Below are positions 44,719 to 47,075 of a stretch of 64,000 nucleotides of DNA, in pieces; within the stretch, counting starts at the first letter, position 1, and every line of letters starts with the position of its first letter. The position numbers and the translations under genes were made by a program. The notes beneath the pieces are model-generated. The model did not search any database, was not told the origin of the DNA, and saw only the letters and a list, made by a program, of their open reading frames with translations. The stretch is from contig NZ_RBIL01000001.1 of assembly GCF_003633755.1 (NCBI RefSeq), positions 2,093,426-2,157,425 on the forward strand, given 5' to 3'. Source of the stretch: Solirubrobacter pauli (GTDB lineage Bacteria > Actinomycetota > Thermoleophilia > Solirubrobacterales > Solirubrobacteraceae).

Positions 44719-44790
44719 GCCCCCATGGTGTAGCGGTTAGCACGGCAGCCTTTCACGCTGCTAGCACGGGTTCGATTCCCGTTGGGGGTA
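44719..44790 (+). tRNA. tRNA-Glu (anticodon TTC)
   Basis: 72-base cloverleaf: acceptor GCCCCCA/TGGGGGT, discriminator A, anticodon stem GCAGC/GCTGC with loop CTTTCAC (anticodon TTC), T-arm CGGGTTCGATTCCCG. CCA is not encoded. The hemW start codon follows 14 bases after its 3' end. Confidence 0.95.
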
Positions 44791-44803
44791 CTGCCGAGCG
44801 ACG

Positions 44804-46015
44804 ATGGCCCGCCTACCCACAGGAGATCCCGCGCCCGCTGACGGCGCGCTCCCCATGGCGGCGCTCGAGGGCCTCGGGACGCGACCGTTCGGGTTCTACG
44901 TGCACGTGCCCTTCTGCGCCTCGCGGTGCGGGTACTGCGACTTCAACACGTATGTGCCCGGGGAGCAGGGCGCCGAGCAGGCCGGCGGGTACGTGGAGGC
45001 GGTGCTCGCCGAGATCGACCTTGCGGCGAGGGTGCTGGAAGCGCCGCCGCGCGTGGACACGGTGTTCTTCGGCGGCGGCACGCCTTCGCTGCTCAAGGCC
45101 GAGGAGCTCACGCGGATCCTCGGGCACATCGAAGCGCGCTTCGGGCTGCGGCCCGGCGCCGAGGTGACGACGGAGGCGAACCCGGAGTCGGTCGACCCGC
45201 GCAAGCTCGAGCAGCTGCGCGAGGCCGGGTTCACCCGGCTGTCGCTGGGGATGCAGAGCGCCGTGCCGCGGGTGCTGGAGACCCTCAACCGGGCGCACTC
45301 GCCGGGGCGGCCCCAGCAGGCCGTCGCCGAGGCGCGGGCGGCCGGGTTCGAGCAGGTGAGCCTGGACCTGATCTACGGGACGCCGGGCGAGACGGCGGAG
45401 GACTGGCGGGCGTCGCTGGACGCCGCGCTGAGCGCCGAGCCGGACCATCTCTCGACGTACTCGCTGATCGTCGAGCCGGGGACCAGGCTCGCAGCCCAGG
45501 TGCGCCGGGGCGAGCTCACCGTTCCGGGCGAGGACGTGATCGTGGATCGCTTCGAGACCGCCGAGCGCGTGCTCGCCGACGCGGGCCTGCGCTGGTACGA
45601 GACCTGCTCGTGGGCCACGGACGAGGCAGCGTGGTGCCGGCACAACCTCGGCTACTGGGGCGGCGGCGACTGGTGGGGCGCGGGCCCCGGCGCCCACAGC
45701 CACGTCGGCGGCGTGCGCTGGTGGAACGTGCTGCACCCGCGCGCCTGGGCCGAGAAGCTCGCCGCCGGCACGTCACCGGCCGCGGCGCGGGAGACGCCCG
45801 CCAGCGACGAGGTCCGGCTCGAGCGCGTGATGCTCGGACTCCGGCTGCGCGCGGGCGTCGCGCTCGACCAGCTCACGCCGACGGGCCGCGCGGCGGCCGC
45901 GCGGCACCGCGACGAAGGCCTGCTGGAACCCGACGACCACGCGGCCGGCCGAGCCGTGCTCACGCTCCGGGGACGGCTGCTGGCCGACCCGGTGACGATC
46001 GACCTGGCGGCTTAA
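44804..46015 (+). CDS. hemW: HemW, radical SAM heme chaperone
   Basis: A 403-residue HemN-like radical SAM protein, formerly called coproporphyrinogen oxidase-like; family members deliver heme rather than oxidise coproporphyrinogen. FYVHVPFCASRCGYCDFNTY carries the 4Fe-4S motif CxxxCxxC near residues 32-39; VFFGGGTPSLL and LSLGMQS follow, and SLDLIYGTPGE is the SAM-region signature. C-terminal HemN domain present. The ATG at 44804 sits 14 bases after tRNA-Glu with only a weak site (GAGCGA); an ATG at 44853 (MAALEGLGTRPFGFYVH) would also give a complete enzyme. Confidence 0.88.
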   Translation: MARLPTGDPAPADGALPMAALEGLGTRPFGFYVHVPFCASRCGYCDFNTYVPGEQGAEQAGGYVEAVLAEIDLAARVLEAPPRVDTVFFGGGTPSLLKAEELTRILGHIEARFGLRPGAEVTTEANPESVDPRKLEQLREAGFTRLSLGMQSAVPRVLETLNRAHSPGRPQQAVAEARAAGFEQVSLDLIYGTPGETAEDWRASLDAALSAEPDHLSTYSLIVEPGTRLAAQVRRGELTVPGEDVIVDRFETAERVLADAGLRWYETCSWATDEAAWCRHNLGYWGGGDWWGAGPGAHSHVGGVRWWNVLHPRAWAEKLAAGTSPAAARETPASDEVRLERVMLGLRLRAGVALDQLTPTGRAAAARHRDEGLLEPDDHAAGRAVLTLRGRLLADPVTIDLAA

Positions 46016-46020
46016 CCCGG

Positions 46021-46037
46021 CGTTCCGAGTCGGAACG
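46021..46037. terminator. Short palindrome after hemW
   Basis: CGTTCCGA-G-TCGGAACG, six bases downstream of the hemW stop; it could form a 6-bp hairpin and end the transcript. The rest of 46038-46180 shows nothing recognisable. Confidence 0.35.
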
Positions 46038-46180
46038 TCGCGCGTGCATAGCGGGCCCGATCGTCGTGGCTGGGGGTCGCCGGTGATCCGGCGCATACTG
46101 GTGGTACGTGCGGGATCGCCGGCGGCCTCCAGGCGCGACGAGACGCCCGCTAGGCGCCCGCGAGGTTATGAGTCGGGACG

Positions 46181-46336
46181 CTAGTCGTCAGGCCAATGAC
46201 CGTGCGCGTCGAAGTACTCGCGCGCGGCCTCTTCCTTCTGGCGATCGTCGTCCTTCTTCGCGAGGAAGTAGATGATCACCCCGCACATCGCCATGCCGAG
46301 GATGATCGAGACCCAGGCCCAGATTTCGTAGAACAT
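46181..46336 (-). CDS. Small single-pass membrane protein directly behind tRNA-Lys
   Basis: 51 residues from the ATG at 46336: MFYEIWAWVSIILGMAMCGVI (one membrane helix, about 4-27), then a charged tail KKDDDRQKEEAAREYFDAH ending GHWPDD. The tail motif REYFDxHGHWPDD is one I have seen in small actinobacterial membrane proteins, function unknown. The start codon lies 3 bases after the 3' end of tRNA-Lys on the same strand, leaving no room for a Shine-Dalgarno outside the tRNA. A tidy codon pattern and protein-like composition argue that it is real. Confidence 0.65.
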   Translation of the reverse strand: MFYEIWAWVSIILGMAMCGVIIYFLAKKDDDRQKEEAAREYFDAHGHWPDD

Positions 46337-46339
46337 GAG

Positions 46340-46411
46340 TGCCGCCGGTTGGATTCGAACCAACGCACAACGGATTAAAAGTCCGCTGCTCTACCACTGA
46401 GCTACGGCGGC
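46340..46411 (-). tRNA. tRNA-Lys (anticodon TTT)
   Basis: 72-base cloverleaf: acceptor GCCGCCG/CGGCGGC with discriminator A, D-arm GCTC/GAGC, anticodon stem GCGGA/TCCGT with loop CTTTTAA (anticodon TTT), T-arm GTTGGTTCGAATCCAAC. CCA is not encoded. Confidence 0.95.
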
Positions 46412-46466
46412 CGGCGCGTGCGACTGTATCGCGCAGTACGCTTGCGAGAGGTTGAGCGCAGGTCAA

Positions 46467-47075
46467 GTGGAGGAAACGGGCGGCCGCCGCCGTCGGCGGA
46501 CGCCGGAAGTGGCGGAGGCGGAAATCGTGGCTGCGGCGGAGGCGCTGCTGCGCGAGCGCACGTTCCGCGAGCTGACGGTGGACGAGGTCATGCGGCGCAC
46601 GGACCTGTCCCGGCCGTCGTTCTACGTCTACTTCCGGGACCGCCATCACCTGATGCTCCGGGTCGTCGAGCACATCGGCGCCGAGCTGCGGACGATGTCC
46701 CAGCGCTGGTACACCGGCTCGGGCGACGGGCCCGCGCAGGCGCGTGAGGCGATGGAGGGGTTCGTCGAGGTCTACGCCCAGCACGGCGCCGTCCTGCGGG
46801 CGCTCGCCGACGCCGCGACCGACGACCACGAGGTCGAGCGCGTCTACACCGGCCTCGTGCACGAGTTCGTCGACGTCACCGCGCGCCACATCGAGAAGGA
46901 GATCGAAGCCGGGCGCGTGCTCCCGCTGGACCCGAAGGAGACCGCGCGAGCGCTCGTCTGGATGATGGAGCGCTACCTGAACCGCTCGATGGGCCACGAG
47001 CCGCGCACGCGTCGCGAGACCGTCGCGGAGACGCTCACGACGATCTGGACGCGCGTCCTCTACGGCGCGAGCTGA
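46467..47075 (+). CDS. TetR-family transcriptional regulator (EthR-like)
   Basis: About 202 residues from the GTG at 46467, or 207 from the TTG at 46452. RRRRTPEVAEAEIVAAAEALLRERTFRELTVDEVMRRTDLSRPSFYVYFRDRHHLML (residues about 6-60) is the TetR helix-turn-helix. The ligand domain contains QRWYTGSGDGPAQAREAMEGFVEVYAQHGAVLRAL, typical of the EthR group, which often binds lipophilic molecules. It is divergent from tRNA-Lys and convergent with a membrane protein gene that it overlaps by 16 bases. Target unknown. Confidence 0.82.
   Translation: MEETGGRRRRRTPEVAEAEIVAAAEALLRERTFRELTVDEVMRRTDLSRPSFYVYFRDRHHLMLRVVEHIGAELRTMSQRWYTGSGDGPAQAREAMEGFVEVYAQHGAVLRALADAATDDHEVERVYTGLVHEFVDVTARHIEKEIEAGRVLPLDPKETARALVWMMERYLNRSMGHEPRTRRETVAETLTTIWTRVLYGAS

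What the first reader, a model, noticed from the sequence alone, without database searches (positions are those of the whole stretch)
46331..46411. tRNA-Lys ends 3 bases before the start codon of a small membrane protein gene
On the minus strand the discriminator base (46340) is followed by CTC and then ATG (46336). RNase Z cleavage would release a mature tRNA and at the same time an mRNA with a 3-base leader, i.e. an essentially leaderless message. That ties expression of the 51-residue protein to tRNA processing. Actinobacteria translate leaderless mRNAs well, so the arrangement is workable.
Basis: partly seen in the sequence, partly recalled or inferred. Interest (0 to 1): 0.6.

Follow-up and report, generated by a model that had tools for sequence, protein, structure and literature searches.

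The report
tRNA gene abutting small protein gene
In this soil bacterium a lysine tRNA gene ends three bases before the start codon of a conserved small membrane-protein gene, so cutting out the tRNA would also make the front end of the protein's message; related bacteria show the same layout with other tRNAs and genes.

Summary
The tRNA encodes no CCA; no -10 box at the leaderless distance, no Shine-Dalgarno sequence and no terminator lie between them. The junction is kept in 5 of 7 Solirubrobacter genomes (4 species, one clade) and the ORF is under purifying selection. It is not a one-off: in 6 of the 7 genomes a DUF167 gene starts 1-5 nt after tRNA-Leu(UAA) though the spacer has turned over, and glmU starts 1-2 nt after tRNA-Gln in G077 and in four genomes of two other families. 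In the order, glmU and DUF167 genes that do not abut a tRNA often carry a TAnnnT box 6-7 nt before the start codon (an own leaderless promoter); abutting ones never do. Best reading: tRNA 3' processing (RNase Z is encoded) replaces a promoter in making a near-leaderless mRNA, like mitochondrial tRNA punctuation. Cleavage, 5' end and translation are inferred; no RNA data were available, and bare RTG spacing behind tRNAs is not enriched over chance.

The parts
46423..46428 (-). likely -10 box (TACAGT) of the tRNA-Lys promoter, 11 nt before the tRNA
   Evidence: Invariant in four Solirubrobacter species (alignment); the box assignment is inference; the sigma-70 consensus scan found no promoter in 45900-46560
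46340..46411 (-). tRNA-Lys(UUU), CCA not encoded
   Evidence: identical in four species
46337..46339 (-). 3-nt spacer CTC between discriminator base and start codon; predicted 5' end of the mRNA at 46339
   Evidence: CTC in three species, CTG in S. deserti
46181..46336 (-). 51-aa single-pass membrane protein with tail REYFDAHGHWPDD; stop included
   Evidence: no Pfam or NCBIfam match over cut-off
44719..44790 (+). tRNA-Glu(UUC), second tRNA of the window followed closely by a gene
44804..46015 (+). hemW, start codon 13 nt after tRNA-Glu, no Shine-Dalgarno-like sequence in the spacer
   Evidence: TIGR00539 over cut-off

Best explanation
The tRNA-Lys gene and the 51-aa ORF form one transcription unit from the tRNA promoter. 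RNase P and RNase Z cut out the tRNA; because CCA is not encoded, the 3' cut has to expose the discriminator base, and that cut leaves an mRNA of 5'-CUC-AUG..., a near-leaderless message that actinobacterial ribosomes can translate. Before the cut the start codon lies directly against the folded acceptor stem, so translation should depend on the cut. The ORF is one case of a recurrent actinobacterial arrangement in which a gene read from a leaderless message has lost its own promoter and uses the 3' end of a tRNA instead (tRNA punctuation). Shown: anatomy, conservation, selection, absence of an own -10 box at the leaderless distance, presence of RNase Z, recurrence. Inferred: co-transcription, cut position, translation.
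For: Junction kept in 5 of 7 genus genomes, spacer always 3 nt; purifying selection; start codon aligned with unlinked homologues; 0 of 188 tRNAs in four Solirubrobacter genomes encode CCA; RNase Z in 7 of 7 genomes, 6 over the curated cut-off. Recurrence: DUF167 1-5 nt after tRNA-Leu(UAA) in 6 of 7 genomes with spacers TCG, TTTCC, C, C, CTTC, CTG; DSBA-like gene 1 nt after tRNA-Pro(CGG) in G192, amine oxidase 3 nt after tRNA-Cys in G087, glmU 2 nt after tRNA-Gln in G077; glmU 1 nt after tRNA-Gln in 3 of 3 f60 genomes examined and 2 nt in G262 of f30. Promoter swap: TAnnnT 5-8 nt before the start in 11 of 12 non-abutting glmU genes of the order and 8 of 23 non-abutting DUF167 genes, in 0 of 6 abutting DUF167 and 0 of 6 abutting glmU genes.
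Against: No RNA or ribosome data. Mere RTG spacing is not enriched. The Lys junction has a single origin or loss in one clade and is missing in S. soli and G191. The unlinked ORF51 homologues of those two genomes show no TAnnnT box before their start, so the promoter swap is shown for glmU and DUF167, not for this ORF. In G301 the tRNA 3' end supplies GGAG 5 nt before the glmU start, so Shine-Dalgarno initiation on uncut RNA is possible there. The minimum-energy fold of tRNA plus ORF start is not a cloverleaf (uninformative, z -1.3).
Confidence: 0.6

Rival explanations
1. The ORF is translated from the uncut tRNA-mRNA read-through transcript by ordinary leadered initiation without Shine-Dalgarno help; tRNA cutting merely destroys or ends the message.
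For: No terminator between tRNA and ORF; many actinobacterial leadered mRNAs lack a Shine-Dalgarno site (PMC6448022, abstract and passages).
Against: The 30S site would have to melt the acceptor stem next to the AUG (inference); spacers are 1-5 nt in all abutting DUF167 genes though their sequence changes.
Confidence: 0.15
2. The ORF has its own promoter inside the tRNA gene and starts from a primary transcript.
For: Leaderless promoters exist in other members of the ORF family (TAnnnT before a possible start in 9 of 36 loci against 0-3 at control offsets).
Against: No TAnnnT at the required distance for this ORF or its tRNA-linked orthologues; no sigma-70-like match in 45900-46560. The tRNA is identical in all species, so conservation cannot test it.
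Confidence: 0.1
3. The spacing is an accident of one lineage: a small conserved gene landed behind a tRNA and is expressed weakly or by chance read-through; the other junctions are unrelated coincidences.
For: Single origin or loss on the tree; RTG within 5 nt is common by chance (31 of 323); S. soli and G191 do without it; my survey was started by a found case.
Against: Purifying selection, maintenance of the 3-nt spacer in four species, and independent recurrence with promoter loss at DUF167 and glmU.
Confidence: 0.15

Closest known systems
tRNA punctuation of animal mitochondrial transcripts (Ojala/Montoya/Attardi 1981; recalled, and seen as a cited reference in PMC4633059)
   Same: tRNA genes abut coding genes; excision of the tRNA makes the 5' end of an mRNA with no or very few leader bases.
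   Different: Here a single tRNA and gene in a large bacterial genome with ordinary intergenic space and bacterial enzymes; cleavage not yet shown.
Actinobacterial leaderless mRNAs made by transcription start at the start codon (PMC4633059, PMC3848588, PMC4681348, PMC6448022; abstracts and passages)
   Same: Same class of message; ATG/GTG starts, no Shine-Dalgarno.
   Different: 5' end would come from processing and carry a monophosphate, not from initiation at a TAnnnT promoter.
Leaderless mRNAs made by nucleases: MazF in E. coli (described in PMC3848588 passages), RNase III in S. aureus (PMC3386247 abstract and passages)
   Same: An endonuclease removes the leader after transcription.
   Different: Here the nuclease would be the tRNA-maturing one, acting constitutively, and no leader ever exists apart from the tRNA.
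Bacterial tRNA-mRNA co-transcripts: 8 tRNAs co-transcribed with genes in C. glutamicum (PMC3890552 passages); E. coli thrU-tufB (recalled)
   Same: A tRNA and a protein gene share a transcript.
   Different: As recalled, tufB has a normal leader with a ribosome-binding site; here the start codon abuts the tRNA. Spacings in C. glutamicum were not seen.

Membership tests
tRNA punctuation (mitochondrial type) | tRNA directly abuts the coding gene on the same strand | tested here: met
   3-nt spacer, kept in 5 of 7 genomes
tRNA punctuation (mitochondrial type) | tRNA excision generates the mRNA 5' end | not testable with these tools
   needs 5'-end mapping; RNase Z gene present
tRNA punctuation (mitochondrial type) | used at several tRNA-gene boundaries of the genome | tested here: met
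   as to layout only: two in the window's genome at 3 nt (Lys/ORF51, Leu/DUF167), others in relatives
Leaderless mRNA (primary, actinobacterial) | -10 box (TAnnnT) ending about 6-7 nt before the start codon | tested here: not met
   absent at this ORF and at all tRNA-abutting DUF167 and glmU genes tested
Leaderless mRNA (general) | no Shine-Dalgarno site; 5' end within about 5 nt of ATG/GTG | tested here: inconclusive
   no Shine-Dalgarno tetramer; 5' end inferred from the cut, not measured
Known small-protein families (Pfam, NCBIfam) | score over the curated cut-off | tested here: not met
   best Pfam E 0.04, best NCBIfam E 0.0067, all below cut-off
RNase Z substrate (CCA-less pre-tRNA) | CCA not encoded after the discriminator | tested here: met
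   0 of 188 tRNAs in four Solirubrobacter genomes encode CCA

The most novel reading that the evidence does not exclude
Actinobacteria use tRNA punctuation: at various tRNA genes in several lineages, genes read from leaderless mRNAs (including glmU, recalled to be essential) lost their own promoter and now take their message's 5' end from tRNA 3' processing, which couples protein output to tRNA transcription and RNase Z activity.
Probability: 0.42. Interest if true: 0.8.

Novelty: new variant of a known kind. Interest (0 to 1): 0.62.

Why it matters
It would bring the mitochondrial way of making mRNAs into free-living bacteria, give a second source of leaderless mRNAs besides promoter placement, and tie proteins (a 51-aa membrane protein, DUF167, GlmU) to tRNA supply. 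It is directly testable with dRNA-seq in culturable actinobacteria, and it yields a rule for start-codon annotation: look for a start 0-5 nt after a tRNA.

Tried and rejected
Tried without gain: Pfam and NCBIfam names for the 51-aa protein and three relatives; consensus promoter/terminator scan (nothing on either strand); RNA folding of tRNA plus ORF start (not a cloverleaf, z -1.3); simple counting of RTG near tRNA ends (no enrichment). Rejected as spurious among the 17 'coding-like frames starting 0-5 nt after a tRNA': L200, L048 (terminator hairpin in the frame), L201 (tRNA-like tandem before an Rsr gene), L080 (better start at +73); 13 were kept, of which those starting with TTG (L198, L222, L270) and L158 (no Pfam match) are weak. 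ORF51 as a mobile-element relic at a tRNA attachment site was considered: tRNA-Lys is followed by what look like integrase genes in other genera (by eye), but ORF51 belongs to an order-wide family (120 of 232 genomes), so rejected.

Literature: ten searches found no paper on tRNA processing making leaderless mRNA in bacteria; this is limited to the open-access library held. I read passages or abstracts only, no whole paper.

Full report
Observation. On the minus strand tRNA-Lys(UUU) runs from 46411 to 46340. After discriminator A46340 come CTC and the ATG at 46336 of a 51-codon ORF that ends at 46181.

Is the ORF real and is the junction kept? In the seven genomes of the genus held (G000, G188-G193), five have tRNA-Lys followed by exactly three bases and the ORF's ATG (G188 and G189 are nearly the same strain, so four species). 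The tRNA is identical in these, the spacer is CTC or CTG, and pairwise dN/dS of the ORF is 0.17-0.42 over six species pairs. In S. soli (G192) the ORF lies about 440 nt further down behind two other small ORFs and starts with GTG; in G191 it is not next to tRNA-Lys; both start at the residue aligned with M1. An RNase Z tree puts the five abutting genomes in one clade (support 100/99), so the arrangement arose or was lost once. Of 28 tRNA-Lys(UUU) loci of the order that were read (30 given to the script), the other 23 have no homologue of the ORF directly behind the tRNA. The ORF belongs to a family with a conserved tail (REYFDxHGHWPDE) found in 120 of 232 genomes of the order, often with other transmembrane parts; it has no named family.

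Is it a pattern? All 47 tRNAs of G000 were read, then those of G190, G192, G193 (same genus) and G087, G077, G194 (other genera): 323 tRNAs in seven genomes after leaving out the ten tRNAs of one short G193 contig (locus L197) that looks foreign. In the first five genomes (233 tRNAs), coding-like frames (by codon-position GC) whose first start codon lies 0-5 nt behind the tRNA number 17; I judged 4 spurious. The 13 others are Lys/ORF51 (G000, G190, G193), Leu(UAA)/DUF167 (G000, G190, G192, G193), Pro(UGG)/methyltransferase (G190, G193; TTG at 0 or GTG at 12), Pro(CGG)/DSBA-like (G192, GTG at 1), Gln(CTG)/unnamed (G192, TTG at 2), Arg(CCT)/unnamed (G192, GTG at 3) and Cys/amine oxidase (G087, ATG at 3); none starts at 6-12 nt (Pfam support). 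In G077 and G194 one more starts at 0-5 (glmU, 2 nt behind tRNA-Gln(UUG)) and two at 8 and 9 nt. This listing takes the first start in each frame and so leans towards short distances; and bare RTG triplets at 0-5 nt are no more common than elsewhere (31 of 323 against 24-51 in other 6-nt blocks). The weight therefore rests on conservation and on promoter loss, not on spacing alone.

Conservation under turnover. The DUF167 gene follows tRNA-Leu(UAA) in 6 of 7 genus genomes after 3, 5, 1, 1, 4 and 3 nt with spacers TCG, TTTCC, C, C, CTTC and CTG, while synonymous sites differ by 42-56% (pS). In the two 1-nt cases (G188, G189) the start codon is TTG, a rare leaderless start. In the seventh genome (G191) the spacer is about 50 nt and a TAGGTT box ends 7 nt before the ATG.

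Promoter swap. TAnnnT is the commonest -10 box in P. acnes (PMC3848588 passages). Taking 5-8 nt before the start codon as the mark of a leaderless promoter, it is present in 8 of 23 DUF167 genes that do not abut a tRNA and in 0 of 6 that do (29 of 30 loci scored); at seven other offsets the counts are 0-1 of 29. For glmU of the order it is present in 11 of 12 non-abutting genes and absent in the one abutting gene (70 of 71 loci scored). Closely related genomes are not independent.

Beyond the order. glmU was found in 295 of 296 genomes of the phylum. I read 71 loci: the G077 locus, the 30 best matches, and 40 that I picked to spread over families (not random). 44 of 71 have tRNA-Gln(UUG) upstream on the same strand. 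The start codon lies within 5 nt of the discriminator in six: G077 (2), G262 (2), G301 (5) and all three f60 genomes read (1 each); a further one (G511) has a GTG at 5 but a Shine-Dalgarno-led GTG at 20. In G301 the tRNA end itself offers GGAG 5 nt before the ATG. No abutting glmU gene has TAnnnT.

Mechanism. CCA is not encoded in any of 188 tRNAs of four Solirubrobacter genomes, so the 3' end must be opened at the discriminator and CCA added (established tRNA biology). RNase Z is encoded in 7 of 7 genus genomes, 6 over the curated cut-off and G191 just under it (292.3 against 292.95). RNase Z leaves a 5'-monophosphate on the downstream RNA (recalled). Ends at tRNA 3' ends have been mapped in S. 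coelicolor (PMC4681348 passages) and P. acnes (PMC3848588 passages, which adds that P. acnes lacks an obvious RNase Z, so another nuclease can do it). The released mRNA would start CUC-AUG. Mycobacteria initiate on 5'-terminal RTG (PMC4633059 abstract), and messages with leaders of up to 5 nt are counted as leaderless in M. smegmatis (PMC6448022 passages). I infer that translation needs the cut, because the uncut acceptor stem lies against the start codon.

Comparison. It works like mitochondrial tRNA punctuation, and one of its defining steps (excision makes the 5' end) could not be tested, so it is filed as a new variant, not as a proven member. Ten literature searches found no bacterial case; the library is open-access only.

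Verdict. Observation confirmed; interpretation partly supported and widened: a recurrent tRNA-gene abutment in Actinobacteria that most likely makes near-leaderless mRNAs. Confidence 0.6.

Noticed in passing
window 44719-44804 (+): tRNA-Glu(UUC) is followed after 13 nt by hemW without Shine-Dalgarno-like sequence or terminator; in G190 the spacer is 26 nt with a GTG start.
   Followed up: partly
L035, L036, L038: In S. taibaiensis, S. deserti and S. soli the tRNA-Glu gene points towards the 51-aa ORF from the other strand and ends about 10 nt after its stop codon, so read-through of each would be antisense to the other.
   Followed up: no
L065 (G000:C3 near 231144-231218): Behind tRNA-Pro(UGG) G000 keeps about 23 nt matching the start of the methyltransferase gene that G190 and G193 have there, then diverges: apparent remnant of a lost tRNA-abutting gene.
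   Followed up: partly
L070, L201, L219, L169: tRNA-Arg(GCG)-like hits, in L070 and L201 two in tandem, precede an Rsr (Ro60-like) gene (Rsr match tested for L201); by recall these could be Y RNA (YrlA)-type tRNA mimics rather than tRNAs. Rfam calls them tRNA.
   Followed up: partly
G193 contig C2, L278 and L197: A 4-kb contig carries about ten tRNAs in a row, several with encoded CCA and AT-rich spacers, unlike the rest of the genome: a foreign or contaminating piece; left out of the counts.
   Followed up: no
L097, L101 (other genera of the order): tRNA-Lys(UUU) 3' ends are followed by ORFs resembling integrases (judged by eye), suggesting that this tRNA is an integration site outside Solirubrobacter.
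   Followed up: no
window 46181-46336 and L002-L033: The tail motif REYFDxHGxWPDE is shared by small membrane proteins with different transmembrane parts across the order, up to four copies per genome; function unknown.
   Followed up: partly
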